Shown here one piece after another: positions 42,163 to 50,294 of a DNA stretch of 64,000 bases. This DNA comes from Thermodesulfovibrionia bacterium (GTDB lineage: Bacteria > Nitrospirota > Thermodesulfovibrionia > UBA6902 > BMS3Bbin08). The notes under the pieces were generated by a model. It saw only the letters and a program-made list of their open reading frames with translations. It did no database searches and was not told the origin of the DNA. The position numbers and the translations under genes were made by a program. Positions within the stretch are counted from its first letter, which is position 1; each line of letters begins with the position of its first letter. The stretch is taken from assembly GCA_030694425.1 (NCBI GenBank), contig JAUXYI010000079.1, forward strand, positions 1 to 64,000, given 5' to 3'.

Positions 42163-42368
42163 GAACTCAGCGGTAAGTCGCCCCTCTTTAGCTCTGATCT
42201 TCCGTCCCCTTTATCAATTTTTTAAGGTTGATATCCACCTATTTTTAATTGTATTTTCCTTTAATTCTGCTGTAAAATTTTACATCAGCTCTTACTATTC
42301 TTAACGCAGGCAATGGAAAGGGAAGACGTTTTATCTGAAATCACGATAAGAATTTATTAAGTACATAA

Positions 42369-42485
42369 AACAAACACATAGGCACACATATATTTTAATA
42401 TTGTGTTATACAGAAAGATACAATATTGGACTATGCAGAAGACGGCATATTCAATATGCCTCTTTCTGTTTAATATCTGTTATAC
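42369..42485 (+). other. attC-like site, short-repeat type, copy 1 (array left edge)
   Basis: AACACATAGGCAC ... TGCAGAA(GA)CGGCATATTCAATATGCCTCTTTCTG ... TAATATCTGTTATAC. Outer AACA-x-TAGGC pairs with TTTAATATCTGTT only weakly; the inner hairpin is strong. The final GTTATAC core starts the first cassette. Between nifS (42162) and this site I see no gene. Confidence 0.6.
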
Positions 42486-42504
42486 AATTAAAGAGACAAC
42501 GTAA

Positions 42505-43215
42505 ATGAACGATCCAAATACAAAATTATACGATGAAGTTCATTCCATTATGACGAAAGAACTTTTGACTTTTTTCAAGAAATGTTGCAATGATTTTGAG
42601 TCAGAAGTACCTTACAATTATTTTGGAAACAGAGGGAGTGTTGATATTGTTCAATATAAGACAATAGATATATTGCATCAACCGCATAGCATGCTCTATA
42701 TCTATGAACTCGAATCACAAATAATACGGCTTGAAGAATTAGTTAGAAAATTGAAAGACAGAATGGAATATTTTCCTGAATACTTTGAAAAATCAAGAGG
42801 CATTCCAAAATTAGGAGAAGTCAATCTTTTCATTATTCTTCTAAATACTGCATCAAATTGGAAGGTAGTAAATGAGTATTTAGTTAATTTGAAATCGGCT
42901 TTTTCTCGAGTATATCATACGTTCCCAAAAGATGTTATGAGTAAAACAAAAAATCCTTCTGACAATAATTATTTTGCACAAATTCAGAGAGCATCTTTAG
43001 TTTTTTTTGATCCTTTGAGAGTTCGTCAGTTTGAGGTCAATGAAGATAATATGAATAGAGATGAAATACTTTTTAATCGTATAGCCGCTTTTCAAACAAT
43101 CGAATCATGGCATGACTCAGTTGAGAAAATTCGGGACAGTCTAAATTCTATAAAGCCTGTATTTAATAGTGCAAGCGATTTTCTTGCTAAATACAAGAGA
43201 TATATTAACAACTGA
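42505..43215 (+). CDS. Cassette gene 1, unknown helical protein
   Basis: 236 residues, not recognised. It looks soluble and mostly helical (YIYELESQIIRLEELVRKLKDRM; ESWHDSVEKIRDSLNSIKP) with no membrane segment or zinc motif. It starts 25 bases after the cassette boundary and ends three bases before the attC core GTATAAC, the tight packing typical of integron cassettes. Function unknown. Confidence 0.7.
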   Translation: MNDPNTKLYDEVHSIMTKELLTFFKKCCNDFESEVPYNYFGNRGSVDIVQYKTIDILHQPHSMLYIYELESQIIRLEELVRKLKDRMEYFPEYFEKSRGIPKLGEVNLFIILLNTASNWKVVNEYLVNLKSAFSRVYHTFPKDVMSKTKNPSDNNYFAQIQRASLVFFDPLRVRQFEVNEDNMNRDEILFNRIAAFQTIESWHDSVEKIRDSLNSIKPVFNSASDFLAKYKRYINN

Positions 43216-43217
43216 TT

Positions 43218-43351
43218 GTATAACCACCAGATGGACGTGAACGAGTGCCACAGGACGCTTTTTCAGTTTAGCAGTGGTTTGAGGTTTGCAGATTAATTTT
43301 TGGCTTGCCGACGTGCTTCAGTGGCACACATCGGTGAGTGCATCGTTAGAT
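43218..43351 (+). other. attC site 1
   Basis: Begins GTATAAC (43218) and ends GTTAGAT (43345-43351). The body has ACGAGTGCCACAGGACGCTTTTT on the left and CAGTGGCACACATCGGTGAG on the right, which pair as GAGTGCCAC/GTGGCAC. GTATAAC is the exact reverse complement of the GTTATAC at the start of this cassette. Confidence 0.85.
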
Positions 43352-43375
43352 TTATAGATAGGAGAGCAGCAATAA

Positions 43376-43484
43376 ATGATCGAGGGGCAAAAGTTCAGTC
43401 TTATATATCTTGAAAGAAAAGAACCTGTTCGAGATAGTCAGAGATTTAGAAATAGGTTGTCAGCCTATTATTGTATGAAGAAAA
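43376..43484 (+). pseudogene. Cassette 1b: gene cut by a tag element
   Basis: A frame opens MIEGQKFSLIYLERKEPVRD then continues SQRFRNRLSAYY before entering the AAAGGGGACGGTTCTA tag at 43484. It starts 30 bases after attC 1, as cassette genes do. No remainder is visible beyond the element. The family is not recognised. Confidence 0.55.
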
Positions 43485-43581
43485 AGGGGACGGTTCTATT
43501 AAATGGTTTTTTTCGACATAAAAAATAATATCATAGAAGACAAAGAGGGCGAAGTTGTAGAAATTAGAACCGTCCCCTTTA
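43484..43581. mobile_element. Non-autonomous tag element, GGGGACGGTTCTA type
   Basis: AAAGGGGACGGTTCTATT (43484-43501) and its inverse AATTAGAACCGTCCCCTTT (43563-43581) enclose about 60 bases without a transposase. The layout copies the RAYT terminal tags but with a different tail, so it is likely a miniature element mobilised by a RAYT of another family. Confidence 0.7.
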
Positions 43582-43588
43582 TTTTTGA

Positions 43589-43668
43589 TGTACAGAAAGA
43601 TAAAATATTGGACTATGCAGAAAGAGGCATATTCAATATGCCTCTTTCTGTTTAATATCCGTTAGAGC
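43589..43668 (+). other. attC-like site, short-repeat type, copy 2
   Basis: GTACAGAAAGATAAAATATTGG and the perfect hairpin CAGAAAGAGGCATATT-CAATATGCCTCTTTCTG, ending TTTAATATCCGTTAGAGC. Only the last bases differ from copies 1 and 3, where the next cassette begins. Left arm is shortened next to the tag element. Confidence 0.7.
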
Positions 43669-43677
43669 TGTAATAAT

Positions 43678-44145
43678 ATGGCAATAGATAGAAAGTTAAT
43701 CAATCGAGCATTTTTATCGAAACATGACCTCGACGAATGTAATAAATTTCTATATAAATTTAGCAAAATCGAAGATGACATTATTAAAGAAGCTCTCTTA
43801 ATTGCAGCACTCATTGCTTATGGTCGACCATTTTCAGAAAATAAAGAAAATGATAAGATCATAAAGAAAATTCCCCTTGAACTTGTCACAAGACCATTTG
43901 AACCTAGCGAAAAAAGACTTCATGCAAAATTAATGACAATAAGAAACAAGGCTATTGCACATTCTGATATTGTTAAAAAGCCTACAAGCTCATCAGTTGA
44001 TGGTCAAGGTCTTGTCCAACAGTCGAAACCATACAATATTCTTGCAGAAGACATTGACATAAATAAAATGTTGAATTTATCCAAGAAAATGATTTTAATT
44101 TGTGAAGATATAATTTGTGGTGAGCAGAGAAAACTGAAGCTCTAA
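43678..44145 (+). CDS. Cassette gene 2, small helical protein with RNxxxxH motif
   Basis: 155 residues, mostly helical. IRNKAIAHSDIV near residue 102 has the RNx4H-type motif found in HEPN-like domains and in several abortive-infection proteins. Nothing else identifies a family. Starts 10 bases after the core GTTAGAGC; its stop TAA lies inside the attC core GCTCTAAC, showing extreme compaction. Function unknown; an RNase or RNA-binding role is a guess. Confidence 0.65.
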   Translation: MAIDRKLINRAFLSKHDLDECNKFLYKFSKIEDDIIKEALLIAALIAYGRPFSENKENDKIIKKIPLELVTRPFEPSEKRLHAKLMTIRNKAIAHSDIVKKPTSSSVDGQGLVQQSKPYNILAEDIDINKMLNLSKKMILICEDIICGEQRKLKL

Positions 44146-44271
44146 CACGGCGTACACATTAACGAGTGCTACAGGACACTTTTTGAGCTTGCATTGTGAT
44201 GAGGCGTGCAAATTGGTTTCAGGCAATTGGTTATCTTACAGTGGCACTCGTCAGTGACGCTGGCGTTAGCA
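44139..44271 (+). other. attC site 2
   Basis: GCTCTAAC (44139) to GTTAGCA (44265-44271). The left core is the exact reverse complement of GTTAGAGC at 43661. Arms AACGAGTGCTACAGGACAC and CAGTGGCACTCGTCAGTG pair; the centre contains AGGCGTGCAAATTGGTTTCAGGCA, nearly the same as in attC 5. Confidence 0.9.
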
Positions 44272-44273
44272 AT

Positions 44274-44792
44274 ATGAAAAAATATATAAGTGCAATCGTT
44301 GGCATTATTGTTTTGTTAGCCATCGCAAATAATTTTATTAGGGTATCAGACGGTTATAAAAGTTATGGCTATATAGAGGAATTACTATTCAAAGAACCTA
44401 TAAAACGTAAATTCAATGAATTATTTTTCAGTAAAAACTATGTTTTGTATGAAGATGTAAACGAAAGAACATTTTATATTGCCGGAATTATAGAAAAGTT
44501 TGGAACAGAGATAATTGACAATATAATTTATGAAAAGGAGAGGATTAACGCTATCGATATTCTTGAACGTGCCATAAGTAATTGCTCAAAAATACCTGAT
44601 GATTATTTATTCAATAGCAATCCAGAATTGCCTGCAAAGTACCGAACGCACTTCCAAACCGCATTAATACTTTGGCACACTGGACTACAAAACAAAAAAC
44701 AAGACACTATAATTGAAGGCAATAAAGAATACAATTATTTTTTGAGATGGATTCAGTCTAAAAGTCGTGATGATTTTAAGAATTTGAAATAA
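44274..44792 (+). CDS. Cassette gene 3a, single-anchor unknown protein
   Basis: 172 residues from ATG at 44274 (MKKYISAIVGIIVLLAIANNF). The track start at 44196 lies inside attC 2 and is rejected. One N-terminal membrane segment, then a soluble helical domain (KRKFNELFFSKNYVLYEDVNERTFYIAGIIEKFG). Not recognised. It shares the cassette with two further frames. Confidence 0.7.
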   Translation: MKKYISAIVGIIVLLAIANNFIRVSDGYKSYGYIEELLFKEPIKRKFNELFFSKNYVLYEDVNERTFYIAGIIEKFGTEIIDNIIYEKERINAIDILERAISNCSKIPDDYLFNSNPELPAKYRTHFQTALILWHTGLQNKKQDTIIEGNKEYNYFLRWIQSKSRDDFKNLK

Positions 44793-44804
44793 ATACACGC
44801 AAAC

Positions 44805-44912
44805 ATGACGATAGCTATCCGCTTTAAGTGTGGTGAATTCAAACACGGCTTATTGAAGCCTTGTCCCAGTTGCGGCATAATGCCACTGAATGCAGATGAC
44901 ATATCTCTATAA
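44805..44912 (+). CDS. Cassette gene 3b, 35-residue CxxC peptide
   Basis: Below the track cutoff. MTIAIRFKCGEFKHGLLKPC then PSCGIMPLNADD. The CGExxHGxxxPCPxCG arrangement resembles the start of short zinc-ribbon proteins often found next to unrelated accessory genes. It stops early, so it may be a truncated gene. It lies 12 bases after gene 3a in the same cassette. Confidence 0.5.
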   Translation: MTIAIRFKCGEFKHGLLKPCPSCGIMPLNADDISL

Positions 44913-44923
44913 TACAGACAACA

Positions 44924-45403
44924 ATGATACAGATTATCGATATTGCCTATATTAAAAATACAGCAACTGCATTTGAAATCGCGCATGAATTTGTGGGATT
45001 AAGAGCCTTAATAACTGCGGAGGCTGGTACATTTCAAAGTTTTGTCAGAAACCTTTTTCATAAAGTAGATTATCAGTCCTTTGTTAATCGCACCAGAGAG
45101 ATAAAAGATAAAATTGACAGATTGGATAATAACGTTAAATTGCTTTCTCCTCCGAAAGCACCCGCTGCAGAGGAGTTTGCTCAAGCTTTGCATCAATATA
45201 TAGACGCTTTGTCAAAGGCAGTTGAGATATTTTCAAATAAGACAAAGTTTATGGCTGCAAAAGCTAAAGATCCTATGACTCCTGAAACAAGTTATGCAGA
45301 ATTTAAGAAAATTATAAAAGATGAATCCTTATCTCTTGAAGAATGTCAGAATATAGGTGATAAACTTACGATACTTTATAGAAAAAATATAGGGATGTGC
45401 TAA
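44924..45403 (+). CDS. Cassette gene 3c, helical unknown protein
   Basis: 159 residues, nearly all helical, with a likely coiled coil (FVNRTREIKDKIDRLDNNVKLL) and no recognised motif. The stop codon TAA is part of the attC core TGCTAAC. Function unknown. Together with 3a and 3b it makes an unusually long, three-gene cassette. Confidence 0.65.
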   Translation: MIQIIDIAYIKNTATAFEIAHEFVGLRALITAEAGTFQSFVRNLFHKVDYQSFVNRTREIKDKIDRLDNNVKLLSPPKAPAAEEFAQALHQYIDALSKAVEIFSNKTKFMAAKAKDPMTPETSYAEFKKIIKDESLSLEECQNIGDKLTILYRKNIGMC

Positions 45404-45531
45404 CCTGACGCTGCACATGAAAGCGCAGCACAGAACGCTTTTTCGGCTGTGTAGCGGGTTTGGGTTTGCAGAGTATCAATTGACTTGCTGAAGTGATTCG
45501 GTGCTGCGCTTCAGTAAGCAGGAAGTTAGCC
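45398..45531 (+). other. attC site 3
   Basis: TGCTAAC (45398) to GTTAGCC (45525-45531). TGCTAAC is the exact reverse complement of GTTAGCA at the cassette start. Arms CTGCACATGAAAGCGCAGCAC and GTGCTGCGCTTCAG pair; the loop keeps CGCTTTTTCGGCT and GGGTTTGCAGA phrases shared with attC 1. Confidence 0.9.
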
Positions 45532-45567
45532 GTTACAGTCTCTATATTAGGGATTAGGTAATTGAAA

Positions 45568-46560
45568 ATGCAAAAGGAAATTTCCCGAAATATCTTATTT
45601 ACTGGTGCTGGATTCACCAAGAATTTTGGAGGTCTTCTTGCTAAAGAGATGTGGTCGAAAATATTTAATAATGTGCAAGCATATCCTCGACTTAGGGAGT
45701 TGCTTTTTCACGAAACTGATTACGAATCTATTTATTATCATGTCATGACTGGTGATTATGAAGACGAAGAGAAGAATGCAATAGATGTAGCAATATTTGA
45801 AGCCTATAGGATACTTGATGACATAGTCCGTGCTTGGACATTTAGAGATGGTGCCCCAAATCCAGTAAATATATATGGTGTTAATAAGCTGATAGAACGT
45901 TTCTGTGGCTCAAGAGATGAAATAGGATTCTTTTTTACCCTTAATCAGGATATTTTCATAGAAAGACATTTTAACAGTCTATCGAAAATGTTGATTCACC
46001 CTGGCGTACCCAGAATACCAGATACACATAAAATTATTAATAGACTCCCTCTGGAAAGGCAAGATTTTATCACGGTTCCTACAAATGAACAATTGAGAAA
46101 TAAACCGATAAACTCCATCTCAAGCAGAACGCTACATTATGTAAAACTACACGGCTCTTTTGGATGGTTAAGTTCTGATGGGACGAATTGCTATGTCATC
46201 GGTAAGAAAAAAGAGAACCAGATAGCCGATGAACCATTATTATCTTGGTATTTCGACCTATTTACACAAGTGTTATCCAAGCCTGATAGGAAACTATTTG
46301 TTATTGGGTATGGTTTTAAGGATCGCCATGTAAACGAAGTTATTGCAAGTTCTATCAACAATTCCAATCTTAAGTTGTATGTTATGTCTCCATCGGCCCA
46401 ATCGGAGTTTCTTACTAACGTAGGTGCTGTTGAACACGGAGAAACGATTCTTAAAGGACTTAGTGGTTACTTCCCATATACATTATTAGAAGTATTTACG
46501 TCAGATCAATCAGAGTCTCATGGTTGGAGAGAAATAGTTAAGTGGTACTTTACAAACTAA
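45568..46560 (+). CDS. Cassette gene 4, SIR2-domain protein
   Basis: 330 residues from ATG at 45568. SIR2-fold landmarks: ILFTGAGFTKNFGG (NAD-binding GAG), FFTLNQDIFIERHF (TxNxD), YVKLHGSFGW with the candidate catalytic His, and LFVIGYGFKDRHVNEVI (second NAD block). This is the SIR2-like class found in anti-phage NADases (Thoeris, DSR, Avs/pAgo partners) more than in deacetylases, because no zinc cysteines are present. It is alone in its cassette, with no partner in the same cassette. NAD depletion on phage infection is an inference. Confidence 0.8.
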   Translation: MQKEISRNILFTGAGFTKNFGGLLAKEMWSKIFNNVQAYPRLRELLFHETDYESIYYHVMTGDYEDEEKNAIDVAIFEAYRILDDIVRAWTFRDGAPNPVNIYGVNKLIERFCGSRDEIGFFFTLNQDIFIERHFNSLSKMLIHPGVPRIPDTHKIINRLPLERQDFITVPTNEQLRNKPINSISSRTLHYVKLHGSFGWLSSDGTNCYVIGKKKENQIADEPLLSWYFDLFTQVLSKPDRKLFVIGYGFKDRHVNEVIASSINNSNLKLYVMSPSAQSEFLTNVGAVEHGETILKGLSGYFPYTLLEVFTSDQSESHGWREIVKWYFTN

Positions 46561-46591
46561 GTGATACAGTTAAATGTCTTTTAAAAGGAGC

Positions 46592-46617
46592 GGTTAACCA
46601 GATGGACATGAACGAGA
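46592..46617 (+). other. Truncated attC site 4
   Basis: GGTTAACCAGATGGACATGAACGAG matches the left arm of attC 1 (TAACCACCAGATGGACGTGAACGAGTGCC) and then stops at the tag element. GGTTAAC differs from the reverse complement of the cassette's GTTAGCC by one base. Confidence 0.75.
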
Positions 46618-46782
46618 AAAAAAAGGGGACAAAAATTAGGGACACATCCCATATTTTTTGACAAAGGTAAATTTCTTATGTAGAATTTTTCTATGCCGAG
46701 TATAGTGAGAACGGTGAAGGAATTAAGGGATGTGTCCCTAATTTTCGTGGTGTCCCTAATTTTCGTGTCCCTAATTTTCGAA
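46618..46782. mobile_element. Non-autonomous tag element, GGGACACATCCC type
   Basis: Left end AAAAGGGGACAAAAATTAGGGACACATCCC; right end GGGATGTGTCCCTAATTTTCG followed by two more TGTCCCTAATTTTCG units. Only the first codons of a frame (MPSIVRTVKEL) lie inside. It interrupts attC 4 and removed the right half of that site and the start of the following cassette. Confidence 0.7.
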
Positions 46783-46899
46783 AACTAACACATAGGCATA
46801 AATATATTTCAATATTGTGCTATACAGAAAGATAAAATATTGGACTATGCAGAAAGAGGTATATTCAATATGCCTCTTTCTGCCTAATATCTGTTGGCT
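46783..46899 (+). other. attC-like site, short-repeat type, copy 3
   Basis: ACTAACACATAGGCATAAATAT to TGCCTAATATCTGTTGGCT. Outer arms pair: CTAACA-CA-TAGGCA with TGCCTA-ATATC-TGTTGG, an R/L box arrangement of attC type. The inner hairpin CAGAAAGAGGTATATT/AATATGCCTCTTTCTG is shared with copies 1 and 2. Confidence 0.75.
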
Positions 46900-46914
46900 A
46901 AAGGGGAAATAACT

Positions 46915-47709
46915 GTGCCTGCAATATTGCTTACATGGAATCCTGATAGATTTAGCTGGGATGATTTACGTAAAAATGCAAATCAAGTCGCAAAGACAAA
47001 AAAATTAGAAACTCGATGGAGTTGTGGTAATTCAAAAAATATCCCCATTGGCACAAGATTTTTCATGGTTCGTCTTGGAGTTGAGCCAAAGGGTATAATT
47101 GGTTCTGGATATACGTTATCAAAACCGTTTAAAGACAAGCATTGGGAGAGAGATAACGATATTGCATTGTATGTCAGAATCGTATTTCATATGCTCAAAG
47201 AGAATCCATCCGTTTCTTTACGAGAACTTCAGCGCAAGTTACCTAAAGTCAAATGGAATCCTCAAGCTTCTGGAGTAAGCATAAAAGACCAGAATGCAAT
47301 AAAATGGCTTGAAGACATTTGGGAACAGAGAACTCAAGAAGAGAAGTCAACAATTCCAATTCATGAAAATACAGAAAACATTGATTTTAAAGAAGGGAAA
47401 CGTATTAAATATGAGGCCACAAGAATAGAGCGGAAGGTACAGGCTAAGAAAATATGTATATCACATTATGGATCATCATGTGCTGTGTGTGGCGTAACTC
47501 TTTCAGAATTTTATGGACCAATTGCAACCGGATTAATACACGTTCATCATCTTAATCCTATTTCTGAAAGTGACTCCGAAAGATCAGTTGATCCAATCAC
47601 AGAACTTCGTCCAGTTTGTCCAAATTGTCATGCGGTCATTCATCTTAAGACGCCACCATACAGAATAGATGAACTACAACAATATATATCTGAACATAAT
47701 AGCAAATGA
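46915..47709 (+). CDS. Cassette gene 5, EVE-HNH endonuclease (candidate modification-dependent restriction enzyme)
   Basis: 264 residues from GTG at 46915, eight bases after AAGGGG; the track's TTG start lies inside the attC core. Residues about 1-85 (LLTWNPDRFSW ... TRFFMVRLGVEPKGIIGSG) look like an EVE/PUA-like domain, known to read modified bases. The C-terminus is an HNH nuclease: CAVCGVTLSEFYG, IHVHHLNPIS, LRPVCPNCHAVIH with both zinc pairs. EVE-HNH and SRA-HNH proteins are restriction enzymes cutting modified DNA. The cassette carries no methylase, in line with that type. Confidence 0.8.
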   Translation: MPAILLTWNPDRFSWDDLRKNANQVAKTKKLETRWSCGNSKNIPIGTRFFMVRLGVEPKGIIGSGYTLSKPFKDKHWERDNDIALYVRIVFHMLKENPSVSLRELQRKLPKVKWNPQASGVSIKDQNAIKWLEDIWEQRTQEEKSTIPIHENTENIDFKEGKRIKYEATRIERKVQAKKICISHYGSSCAVCGVTLSEFYGPIATGLIHVHHLNPISESDSERSVDPITELRPVCPNCHAVIHLKTPPYRIDELQQYISEHNSK

Positions 47710-47737
47710 GAATCAGTTCCACAAAATACGATACATC

Positions 47738-47871
47738 AGCCAACCACACGCTGCACTTGAACGAGTGCCACAGGACGCTTTTTTAGCTTGTATTGCGATG
47801 GAGGCGTGCAAATTGGTTTTAGGCAAGTTTTTATAATTCAGTGGCACTCGTCACTCAACTTTACGTTGGCC
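47738..47871 (+). other. attC site 5
   Basis: AGCCAAC (47738) to GTTGGCC (47865-47871). AGCCAAC is the exact reverse complement of the cassette's GTTGGCT. Arms GAACGAGTGCCACAGGAC and CAGTGGCACTCGTCACTC pair; centre AGGCGTGCAAATTGGTTTTAGGC is almost identical to attC 2. Confidence 0.9.
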
Positions 47872-47890
47872 CGAAAATGAAAGGCATTAA

Positions 47891-48070
47891 ATGGCAATCA
47901 TAATAAAAAATGGGATCAAGGGGAAAGTATGCTCTACATGTCACAAGTGGAAGCGGTTAGATGACTTCCCGACTGATCCCACTCACGGTTCTTCGCAAGG
48001 CGGTCGTCATTGTAGGTGTAAAGAATGTCATCGGACCAAAGTAAGATTAAAAAGGCAGCAAAGCTTATGA
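47891..48070 (+). CDS. Cassette gene 6a, 59-residue zinc-ribbon protein
   Basis: Below the track cutoff. MAIIIKNGIKGKVCSTCHKW then RLDDF and CRCKECHRTKVR, a CxxC...CxC/CxxC arrangement like the zinc ribbon that precedes many HNH and phage-type proteins (CSKCGExKPLxxF...CKxC). Its stop overlaps the likely start of gene 6b (ATGA at 48067), so the two are coupled. Role unknown. Confidence 0.65.
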   Translation: MAIIIKNGIKGKVCSTCHKWKRLDDFPTDPTHGSSQGGRHCRCKECHRTKVRLKRQQSL

Positions 48071-48588
48071 AGGCATCTGATTTCACCGGTGACCTTAATA
48101 CTTTTCTGGCATTTTATAAATTTCAGCCGGCACTTACAAAACGACTTGATAATTTAGAAAATGCTTCTATTGACCAGTCGCTGATAAATGAAATAGTCCT
48201 TTGGAAGGTTAACCGTTATGTATGCCTCGGTGATGAGAATATAGAGCAGCTTAAAGAGCTTAAAGGTTTGAAAGCAGGAGAGCATAAAAAAGGCAATGAA
48301 ATACTAAAGGCACTGTTAGATGTTAATGGCGTAGATCTTCCAATGGCATCAACTATATTGCGTTTTATCAATCCGAAGGTTTTTCAAATAATTGACCGGC
48401 ACGCCTACAGAGCAGTCTATGGTAAGAAGTATCCCCTATATCAAGCGACGCAAACTGAGAGAAAAATATCACTCTATTTTGACTATATCTTTGACCTGAT
48501 GGAGCTCTGCAAATCTAAGGGGCTCGCATTTACAACAATTGATCGATTGCTTTATATCTTTGATAAAAAAAAGAATGGAAAATTATGA
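48067..48588 (+). CDS. Cassette gene 6b, HhH/DNA-glycosylase-like protein
   Basis: About 173 residues from ATG at 48067, whose first bases overlap the stop of gene 6a; the track start 48025 lies inside 6a. The block LLDVNGVDLPMASTILRFIN then FQIIDRHAYRAVYG resembles the helix-hairpin-helix plus conserved Asp of base-excision glycosylases of the HhH-GPD type. The hairpin lysine is not evident. It could bind or process damaged or modified DNA. Family assignment is tentative. Confidence 0.55.
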   Translation: MKASDFTGDLNTFLAFYKFQPALTKRLDNLENASIDQSLINEIVLWKVNRYVCLGDENIEQLKELKGLKAGEHKKGNEILKALLDVNGVDLPMASTILRFINPKVFQIIDRHAYRAVYGKKYPLYQATQTERKISLYFDYIFDLMELCKSKGLAFTTIDRLLYIFDKKKNGKL

Positions 48589-48593
48589 GGCAA

Positions 48594-48682
48594 GGCCAAG
48601 AAGCGGGTCGAGGCGACAGGGAATAGCCTCTGCGGTTTTTGCGAAGCTGGTTGCCCCGGTCGCCTCACCCATATCGTTAGAC
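48594..48682 (+). other. attC site 6 (short form)
   Basis: GGCCAAG (48594) to GTTAGAC (48676-48682). The left core differs from the reverse complement of GTTGGCC only in the last base. Arms GGTCGAGGCGACAGGGAATAGCC and GTTGCCCCGGTCGCCTCACCC pair around GCGGTTTTTGCGAAGC. It is of a different, shorter type than attC 1-5. Confidence 0.75.
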
Positions 48683-48696
48683 GAAATTAATGACCT

Positions 48697-49251
48697 ATGG
48701 AAAAGTTCAAAGCATTAGACCAGATCTATCAGGCAGATGCGAGGAGTCTTTATTTTTCCATCGTAGATCGTGAGACGGGAGAATATAGACCATTGGAATT
48801 AAAAGATATCTATGAGACCGTCGCTTCAGTTGAGCTTTCACCATCTGTGCCGGAAGATGTTAGAAGTCAATTCAATGTTGCAAAAAATCTGGCTGTATAT
48901 ACATGGTTTTCATATTCGTTTCATCAGATTTCCGAATTAAAAGCCTTTTCGACTTTAGAAATGGCTTTAAAGTTAAAGTTCGGGAAGGGCAAGAATAGTT
49001 TTAAAGACCTAATAAAAAAATCAATAGCATCTGGGCTAATCAAAGATAAAGGGTTTTCCCTTATTACAGAAACTTTGGAAGATGAAGACTCGATGGAATA
49101 TTCAAAAGCTTTACCAGATGTCATTCCATATCTAAGGAACGAACTAGCTCATGGTAGCACAATGTTGCACCCAGGGTCTATCACAAATTTGGCAATTTGT
49201 GCAGACTTTATAAATCAGCTTTTCCAAAACGAATCTAACAATAAAATATAG
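48697..49251 (+). CDS. Cassette gene 7, unknown protein with RNxxxH motif
   Basis: 184 residues. YLRNELAHGSTMLHPGS near residue 150 is the RNx3H motif typical of HEPN-like and APEA-type domains. The rest is helical (TWFSYSFHQISELKAFSTLEMAL). It starts 15 bases after the cassette boundary. Last cassette of the array. Function unknown; a HEPN RNase role would fit the other contents but is a guess. Confidence 0.65.
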   Translation: MEKFKALDQIYQADARSLYFSIVDRETGEYRPLELKDIYETVASVELSPSVPEDVRSQFNVAKNLAVYTWFSYSFHQISELKAFSTLEMALKLKFGKGKNSFKDLIKKSIASGLIKDKGFSLITETLEDEDSMEYSKALPDVIPYLRNELAHGSTMLHPGSITNLAICADFINQLFQNESNNKI

Positions 49252-49290
49252 CCGACACCGCTAAAAGCGGCGGCTGATTTTGGCCGTCAA
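49233..49290 (+). other. Degenerate last attC
   Basis: ATCTAAC (one change from the GTCTAAC expected for this cassette) lies in the last codons of gene 7, followed by the hairpin AGCCGACACCGC-TAAAA-GCGGCGGCT. No GTTRRRY follows before the cupin gene, so the right end of the array has probably been lost. Confidence 0.4.
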
Positions 49291-49299
49291 GCCCCCCCT

Positions 49300-49575
49300 C
49301 TATCCAAACCTATAATGCTTCCGTACTGCCTTATTTATCTTCCATGTACACGACATGCCTTTGGGAAACGTCACAAGGTCTCCTTTTCCTATGTGAACGG
49401 CTTCGCCCTTGTCAGGCGTCACCACGACATCGCCTTCAAGGAAATAGCATGTCTCTTCTTCGTCATAGCGCCAGGGGAATTCTGAGGCTTCTTTTGTCCA
49501 GATGGGCCAGCGGAACAGTCCCGTTGATTTGAGTTTATCTTCAGAAGGATTTCTATCTATCCGGATGCCTGCCAT
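49300..49575 (-). CDS. Small cupin-domain protein
   Basis: 91 residues. WPIWTKEASEFPWRYDEEETCYFLEGDVVVTP then GKGDLVTFPKGMSCTWKI show the two cupin motifs of the DUF861/ureidoglycine-aminohydrolase-like class; GEAVHIGKGDL sits between them. Metal ligands are partly conserved. Substrate unknown. It is convergent with the integron array and marks its right flank. Confidence 0.85.
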   Translation of the reverse strand: MAGIRIDRNPSEDKLKSTGLFRWPIWTKEASEFPWRYDEEETCYFLEGDVVVTPDKGEAVHIGKGDLVTFPKGMSCTWKINKAVRKHYRFG

Positions 49576-49659
49576 ATTTGTATTTATACCCTTTTATCTC
49601 TTATTTTTCAAGAAAAATATACTGTTTGACAATACATCAAATTGGTTGTATTATAGATA

Positions 49660-50007
49660 ATGCTATTTCATGTAAATTACTGGCGTAATCCATCAGGAAA
49701 AGCGCCTGTTGAAAAATACATTGATGATATAGATAACAAAGAAGAAAAGGCAGAATTACTCTCTGCTTTGAAAGGCATACAGGAATATGGCACGGATGCT
49801 GTAGGCGTTGATTTCAGGCAAATAGAAGGCAAGCTATGGGAATTAAAGATAAGAACACATGGGAAACAGCACAGAATATTTTATGCTGTCCTTAAGGGGA
49901 ATGAAATGATACTGCTTCACGCATATTTAAAAAAGACACCTAAAGCACCTATAAAAGAGATACAGACAGCCAAACAAAGACTAAAACAATTAATGGAGGT
50001 TAGATAA
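49660..50007 (+). CDS. HigB/RelE-type toxin (Gp49-like)
   Basis: 115 residues. The phage-derived Gp49/HigB family is recognised by LRQIEGKLWELKIRTHGKQHRIFYAVLKG-type order (here FRQIEGKLWELKIR then HRIFYAV) and MILLHAYLKKTPKAP. Probably a ribosome-dependent mRNA endonuclease. Its stop overlaps the start of the antitoxin by one base, toxin first, as in higBA. Confidence 0.85.
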   Translation: MLFHVNYWRNPSGKAPVEKYIDDIDNKEEKAELLSALKGIQEYGTDAVGVDFRQIEGKLWELKIRTHGKQHRIFYAVLKGNEMILLHAYLKKTPKAPIKEIQTAKQRLKQLMEVR

Positions 50008-50294
50008 TGAAAAGCGACCTTGATAAACATATTGAGAGACACTTAAAAGACAGGGAATTCAAGATTTACTTTGACAGGGCAGAAGCTAAAAGGAAAATAG
50101 CCCAAGAGATAGCGACCTTAAGAAAAGCACATCACATCACACAGGCACAATTGGCTAAAGAAGTAGGAACTAAACAACAGGTGATCTCAAGAGTTGAAAG
50201 CCCTCGTGATAAACGTATGCCTTCTTTTGAATTCCTTGACAGGATAGCAAAAGTATTTAATAGACGGCTTGTTATTTCTTTACAGAGGCAATAG
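50007..50294 (+). CDS. HigA-type antitoxin with XRE helix-turn-helix
   Basis: 95 residues. The HTH core reads IATLRKAHHITQAQLAKEVG then TKQQVISRVES, an XRE/Cro-type domain. The following MPSFEFLDRIAKVFNRRLVIS completes the family pattern. It would neutralise the toxin upstream and repress the operon. TA order and one-base overlap make the pair confident. Confidence 0.88.
   Translation: MKSDLDKHIERHLKDREFKIYFDRAEAKRKIAQEIATLRKAHHITQAQLAKEVGTKQQVISRVESPRDKRMPSFEFLDRIAKVFNRRLVISLQRQ

What the first reader, a model, noticed from the sequence alone, without database searches (positions are those of the whole stretch)
42369..49290. Integron cassette array with no integrase in view, validated by core-site complementarity
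Plus-strand genes are separated by attC sites whose RYYYAAC is the exact reverse complement of the GTTRRRY at the start of the same cassette in four cases (GTATAAC/GTTATAC, GCTCTAAC/GTTAGAGC, TGCTAAC/GTTAGCA, AGCCAAC/GTTGGCT) and near-exact in two more. That relation arises only if each unit once closed into a circle. It looks like the end of a sedentary chromosomal integron or a CALIN in an organism group where integrons are poorly known.
Basis: partly seen in the sequence, partly recalled or inferred. Interest (0 to 1): 0.9.

Follow-up and report, generated by a model that had tools for sequence, protein, structure and literature searches.

The report
Integron remnant with three attI sites
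This stretch of a Nitrospirota-type bacterial genome is a gene-capturing integron that has lost its integrase but kept its capture site (attI) in three copies along the cassette array, a layout I found in no other genome searched and one that shows how integrase-less arrays can arise.

Summary
The array is real. A covariance model built only from attC sites on intI-bearing contigs of other genomes finds all four attC sites in the window at 80-111 bits (next match 12). No integron integrase was found in this assembly, although 28 of 61 genomes searched (this one and 60 relatives) have one. By definition this is a CALIN.

A 115-bp repeat that precedes cassettes at 42367, 43583 and 46781 is attI. 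Homologues lie just upstream of intI in at least eight related genomes, with two 25-bp-spaced direct repeats, and end at G|TTRRRY where the cassette begins. So the array is a mosaic of three attI-headed modules. A conserved promoter-like leader (candidate Pc) remains before attI-1. The two internal attI copies directly abut short REP-like palindromes, one of which truncates an attC.

Sister genomes have the flanking NifS and histidine kinase genes without the array. This attI family otherwise occurs in a different family of the order, which points to horizontal acquisition followed by intI loss. The joining mechanism is inferred. Caveats: metagenome assembly, no function tested.

The parts
42249..42278 (+). 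candidate cassette promoter Pc (TTGTAT, 18-bp spacer, TAAAAT) in the leader of attI-1
   Evidence: Leader aligns with leaders of intact relatives, which read TTGCCT-N18-TAAACT/TAAAAT; 217 bp to the GTT is 76% identical to G019:C29. Function not tested.
42368..42481 (+). attI-1, head of the array
   Evidence: Homologue of sites next to intI in at least 8 genomes; direct repeats at -82 and -57 from GTT.
42479..43345 (+). cassette 1, ORF 42505-43215 (236 aa, no Pfam/PADLOC/NCBIfam match)
   Evidence: GTTATAC/GTATAAC exact.
43218..43351 (+). attC A
   Evidence: 97.5 bits with independent model R3.
43345..43477 (+). remnant of cassette 2, cut by a REP-like element
   Evidence: Starts GTTAGAT; no ORF of 60 aa listed.
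43478..43585 (+). REP-like palindrome (GGGGACGGTTCT...AGAACCGTCCCC) abutting attI-2
   Evidence: further copies in the genome.
43583..43663 (+). attI-2, left part lost
   Evidence: 74.7 bits with R2 (this copy is in the training set).
43661..44264 (+). cassette 3, ORF 43678-44145 (weak HEPN_AbiU2 match, below cut-off)
   Evidence: GTTAGAGC/GCTCTAAC exact.
44140..44271 (+). attC B
   Evidence: 93.2 bits with R3.
44265..45524 (+). cassette 4, ORFs 44274-44792 and 44924-45403
   Evidence: GTTAGCA/TGCTAAC exact.
45398..45531 (+). attC C
   Evidence: 79.6 bits with R3.
45525..46615 (+). cassette 5, ORF 45562-46560 (SIR2-like, Pfam SIR2_2)
   Evidence: 31.9 bits over cut-off 24.5.
46592..46616 (+). 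attC F, only the left arm left
   Evidence: GGTTAACCAGATGGACATGAACGAG, 95% over 20 nt to attC A (family D4); then REP-like element.
46616..46780 (+). REP-like palindrome (GGGACACATCCC...GGGATGTGTCCC) abutting attI-3
   Evidence: related copies flank a Y1_Tnp gene on G000:C23.
46782..46895 (+). attI-3
   Evidence: 95.1 bits with R2 (training member); 90% identical to attI-1, 88% to the attI beside intI in G034:C57.
46893..47864 (+). cassette 6, ORF 46894-47709 (HNH-like, below cut-off)
   Evidence: GTTGGCT/AGCCAAC exact.
47738..47871 (+). attC D
   Evidence: 111.3 bits with R3.
47865..48675 (+). cassette 7, ORF 48025-48588 (weak DNA-glycosylase-like match)
48594..48682 (+). degenerate attC-like site E (R'' GGCCAAG, stem GGTCGAGGCGAC/GGTCGCCTCACC)
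   Evidence: Folding z -3.27; not found by R1 or R3.
48676..49251 (+). cassette 8, ORF 48697-49251, no attC behind it
   Evidence: GTTAGAC start; ATCTAAC at 49233 matches 6/7, may be chance.

Best explanation
This is the remnant of one or more chromosomal integrons that lost the integrase gene and kept the leader, the attI sites and the cassettes. Circular cassettes were once inserted by an integrase at attI (G|TTRRRY), which gave the paired core sites. The attI type belongs to integrons of another family of the same order, so the element was probably acquired horizontally and landed between NifS and a histidine kinase gene. The array is now made of three attI-headed modules: attI-1 with cassettes 1-2, attI-2 with cassettes 3-5, attI-3 with cassettes 6-8. 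At both internal module borders a REP-like palindrome replaces the end of the upstream module and the leader/intI side of the next attI, so the modules were most likely joined, and any intI between them lost, by events at these palindromes. Shown: attC, attI identity by position and sequence, intI absence in the assembly, indel at the locus. Inferred: direction of transfer, intI loss in place, joining by REP events, promoter activity. Any cassette movement now would need an integrase supplied in trans.
For: Independent attC model hits all four sites. Repeat D1 homologues lie beside intI, divergently and ahead of the first cassette, in G008:C20, G034:C57, G036:C20, G027:C19, G030:C1, G012:C76, G037:C100, G019:C22, and identity stops at GTT. 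Direct repeats 25 bp apart. No match with the IntI-specific region in the genome: best match 130 bits against a cut-off of 265, missing positions 172-235. attI family absent from same-family genomes G001-G003 and otherwise found with strong scores only in genera g9 and g14 of family f3 (6 of 346 genomes sampled across the phylum). NifS and histidine kinase are 37 bp apart in one sister and less than 3 kb apart in most others.
Against: The genome is a 101-contig metagenome assembly, 96.4% complete, so an intI on missing sequence is possible. The three attI copies are slightly closer to each other (90-91%) than to any relative (88% or less), which fits old duplication as well as joining of separate integrons. 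The role of the REP-like elements rests on position only. attI-2 and attI-3 keep no leader.
Confidence: 0.82

Rival explanations
1. Ordinary CALIN: cassettes were inserted into the chromosome at a secondary site by an integrase acting in trans, and the D1 repeats are an unrelated repeat.
For: CALIN are common; G000 has other scattered attC sites on C45, C25, C14, C22, C23.
Against: D1 is homologous to the site beside intI in at least eight genomes and ends at the recombination point; a promoter-like leader survives before attI-1. Secondary-site insertion would not bring attI.
Confidence: 0.07
2. The integron is complete in the living cell and intI is only missing from the assembly.
For: Metagenome assembly, 96.4% complete; integrons often break contigs (many relatives have attI at a contig end).
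Against: The intI side of attI-1 is on the same contig and the leader is followed within about 80 bp by NifS (ends 42162), so no intI fits in cis; all three attI lie inside one contig.
Confidence: 0.1
3. The three-attI layout is an assembly chimera joined at short repeats.
For: REP-like repeats sit at both internal borders.
Against: attI copies differ by about 10% and are not collapsed; cassettes have paired core sites within each module; flanking NifS and HK synteny is intact.
Confidence: 0.08
4. Internal attI copies were brought in by the integrase itself, as delta-attI-type cassettes (ORF followed by attI in place of attC).
For: Such cassettes exist and recombine in class 1 and 2 integrons (PMC12901181). 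Cassette 5 is now followed by attI-3.
Against: Cassette 5 still carries the left arm of its own attC and a REP-like element before attI-3, so it was a normal cassette first.
Confidence: 0.15

Closest known systems
CALIN (cluster of attC sites lacking integrase; IntegronFinder 2.0, PMC9024848)
   Same: Two or more attC sites less than 4 kb apart, no intI.
   Different: Carries three attI copies and a promoter-like leader. The survey states that attI outside class 1 is poorly described and not detected, so such heads are normally not seen.
Sedentary chromosomal integron
   Same: Similar attC sites and the same attI type as intI-bearing integrons of related genomes.
   Different: No intI; array split into three attI-headed modules.
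Delta-attI-type gene cassettes of class 1 and 2 integrons (PMC12901181)
   Same: Extra attI sequence inside a cassette array.
   Different: There mostly 14-18 nt of attI replace attC of one cassette, rarely a longer stretch or a complete attI1; here 81-115 bp attI copies head new modules and abut REP-like elements. Chromosomal, no resistance cassettes recognised.
Xanthomonas integrons with inactivated intI (PMC12444791)
   Same: intI decay at a chromosomal integron, cassettes retained.
   Different: No second attI described in the passages read; in this window intI is gone altogether.

Membership tests
CALIN | at least two attC sites less than 4 kb apart | tested here: met
   Four sites, gaps 0.8-2.2 kb, model R3 built without them.
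CALIN | no integron integrase nearby | tested here: met
   No match over cut-off in the assembly; 96.4% complete.
Complete integron | intI gene with the IntI-specific region | tested here: not met
   Best match C32 misses model positions 172-235.
Complete integron | attI next to intI | tested here: inconclusive
   attI present in three copies, intI absent.
Complete integron | Pc promoter reading into the array | tested here: inconclusive
   Conserved promoter-like leader before attI-1; the plain consensus scan does not list it and finds no excess of promoters over shuffles.
Gene cassette | start GTTRRRY and R'' RYYYAAC of one cassette are reverse complements | tested here: met
   4 exact, 3 at 6/7, best of 5040 permutations.
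attC site | folded stem conserved by covariation | tested here: met
   0/500 shuffles reach the covariation score.
attI site | recombines with attC under IntI | not testable with these tools
   Position and sequence only.
Delta-attI-type cassette | attI in place of the cassette's own attC | tested here: not met
   Cassette 5 retains the left arm of its attC at 46592-46616.

The most novel reading that the evidence does not exclude
attI-headed, integrase-free modules spread and concatenate as units in these bacteria, with REP/RAYT-type elements inserting into folded attC sites and supplying the junctions. Orphan leader-attI-cassette loci without intI in G036:C102, G019:C29 and G022:C53 would be further products of the same process, and the extra attI copies would act as additional insertion and expression heads when an integrase is present in trans.
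Probability: 0.25. Interest if true: 0.65.

Novelty: new variant of a known kind. Interest (0 to 1): 0.5.

Why it matters
CALIN have been proposed to be degraded integrons (PMC9024848), but attI is rarely recognisable, so the route is hard to test. Here a conserved attI family gives a molecular head for such arrays and shows, at one locus with clear empty-site sisters, an array whose attI and leader outlived intI. Three attI copies in one array mean that integrons can be stitched end to end. The attI model (R2) and attC model (R3) make a census of headed and headless CALIN possible in this order, where intI is common but little described.

Tried and rejected
A home-made attC finder was too strict at first and weak later; replaced by covariance models. 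Single-strand folding of the attC sites gave only modest z-scores, so covariation was used instead. I first took D1 for a second attC family because it is bounded by AAC and GTT; folding and comparison with G008:C20 rejected that. The strongest integrase-like match in the genome (C32) was rejected as IntI because the IntI-specific region is missing. I suspected a sharp module edge at -246 in orphan attI loci; intact integrons also diverge near there in most comparisons, so it may be only the limit of the conserved promoter. Literature searches for 'multiple attI' and for 'loss of the integrase' with CALIN returned nothing.

Full report
Setting. The window is contig C51 of a 2.42-Mb, 101-contig genome, 96.4% complete. 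The nearest NifS relatives are Nitrospirae and Thermodesulfovibrionales metagenome genomes, so the host is most likely a Nitrospirota bacterium of that order; the genome itself is unnamed.

The attC sites. Four complete attC sites lie at 43218-43351, 44140-44271, 45398-45531 and 47738-47871. A first covariance model included them. The proper test is model R3, built only from 18 attC sites on intI-bearing contigs of other genomes: it scores the four window sites at 79.6-111.3 bits, and nothing else in 64 kb exceeds 12.3 bits. The stem covaries in both alignments, with 0 of 500 shuffles reaching the score and slid controls far below. A left arm of a fifth attC remains at 46592-46616. A sixth, at 48594-48682, has a good stem but a mutated R'' (GGCCAAG) and is not found by the models.

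Core sites. Seven cassettes have a start and an end that can be compared. Four match 7/7 and three match 6/7; this assignment is the best of all 5040 permutations.

The repeat is attI. A 115-bp repeat (family D1) ends exactly at the GTT of cassettes 1, 3 and 6. In the own genome it occurs only here. In relatives it lies just upstream of intI and ahead of the first cassette: G008:C20, G034:C57, G036:C20, G027:C19, G030:C1, G012:C76, G037:C100 and, more diverged, G019:C22. Downstream attC sites follow in G008, G034, G037 and G019. Identity holds up to TAATATCTGTT and stops where the cassette begins. Two direct repeats, AATATTGTGCTATACAGAA and a variant, start at -82 and -57 from GTT in the best conserved copies, which resembles the DR1/DR2 layout of attI1 as described in PMC12901181. 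Position, orientation and the crossover boundary together identify it as attI; function is not tested.

Leader. The 217 bp ending at attI-1 are 76% identical to the leader of G019:C29. The aligned leaders share a promoter-like pair, TTGCCT-N18-TAAACT/TAAAAT in most relatives and TTGTAT-N18-TAAAAT at 42249-42278 in the window. I read this as Pc, by inference. The plain promoter scan does not list it and shows no excess over shuffles.

No integrase. The integron-integrase family has no match over its cut-off in the genome. The best match, on C32 (130 bits, cut-off 265), lacks model positions 172-235, where IntI carries its special region. Between NifS (ends 42162) and the leader there are only about 80 bases, so no intI is present in cis. 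By contrast 28 of 61 genomes searched, the window's genome plus 60 relatives, have intI over the cut-off.

Locus history. NifS and the histidine kinase are neighbours across the order: 37 bp apart in G009 and 0.6-2.9 kb in most others, up to 6.6 kb in G019. In the window 8 kb lies between them. None of the cassette proteins was found at the orthologous loci examined. The block, including a cupin gene and a RelE/HTH-type pair beyond the array, is thus an insertion in this lineage or a loss in the others.

Horizontal origin. The attI family is absent from G001-G003, members of the same family, two of which carry intI of their own. Strong matches occur only in genera g9 and g14 of another family of the order, in a search of 47 order genomes and of 346 genomes drawn across the phylum (stricter filters). 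Window attI-3 is 88% identical to G034's attI, while flanking proteins in that family's genomes are about 57-79% identical (other genomes of the same family). Acquisition from that family is the simplest reading.

Three modules. attI-1 heads cassettes 1-2, attI-2 cassettes 3-5, attI-3 cassettes 6-8. Both internal attI copies directly follow a short palindromic element: 43478-43585 (GGGGACGGTTCT arms) and 46616-46780 (GGGACACATCCC arms); the second truncates the attC of cassette 5. A 13-base piece of the first type (CCGTCCCCTTTAT) also sits at 42202, on the intI side of attI-1. Related elements occur elsewhere in the genome. On C23 they flank a Y1_Tnp (RAYT-type) gene, and the attC there is cut in its right arm next to the element. 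I infer that events at these elements joined the modules and removed intervening DNA. The three attI copies are 90-91% identical to each other and at most 88% to relatives, so old duplication within one lineage cannot be separated from joining of arrays with similar attI.

Elsewhere. Leader-attI-cassette loci without intI on the contig also occur in G036:C102, G019:C29 and G022:C53, directly beside ordinary genes. No other contig in the order carried two strong attI matches.

Cargo. Cassette proteins are mostly unknown. One SIR2-like protein passes the Pfam cut-off; HEPN_AbiU2, HNH and glycosylase-like matches are below it. A defence role for some is plausible, not shown.

Literature. Integrons typically have one attI, and attI outside class 1 is poorly described (PMC9024848). 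Extra attI sequence in arrays is known as delta-attI-type cassettes in class 1 and 2 integrons (PMC12901181). I found no report of several attI copies heading separate modules, within an open-access library that omits most subscription papers.

Noticed in passing
G000:C23 (L197) 140-992: A Y1_Tnp (RAYT-type) element with REP-like repeats abuts an attC that is cut in its right arm just after CAGTGGCACT; in the window a related REP-like palindrome cuts attC F at GAACGAG. REP/RAYT elements may target attC stems.
   Followed up: partly
L120 1718-3043 (G008), L136 10123-11418 (G001): The integron integrases of these relatives are 430-441 aa, with about 110-130 extra N-terminal residues before the usual IntI core, possibly a second core-binding domain.
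   Followed up: no
L119 (G007:C40), L120 (G008:C20), L121 (G009:C35): intI lies within a few kb of the same NifS/histidine-kinase gene neighbourhood in three other genera, at three different points. This region may be a recurrent integron site.
   Followed up: partly
G000:C45:48135, C25:16177 and 19868, C14:30956 and 32481, C22:11583, C23:855: Other attC sites scattered over the genome, singly or in pairs, with no attI of this family near them.
   Followed up: partly
window 49300-50294: A cupin gene and a RelE/HTH-type toxin-antitoxin-like pair lie between the array and the histidine kinase and are also missing from the sister loci examined.
   Followed up: no
window 44792-44924: Remains of a reading frame (FKHGLLKPCPSCG) between the two ORFs of cassette 4, suggesting two fused cassettes.
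   Followed up: no
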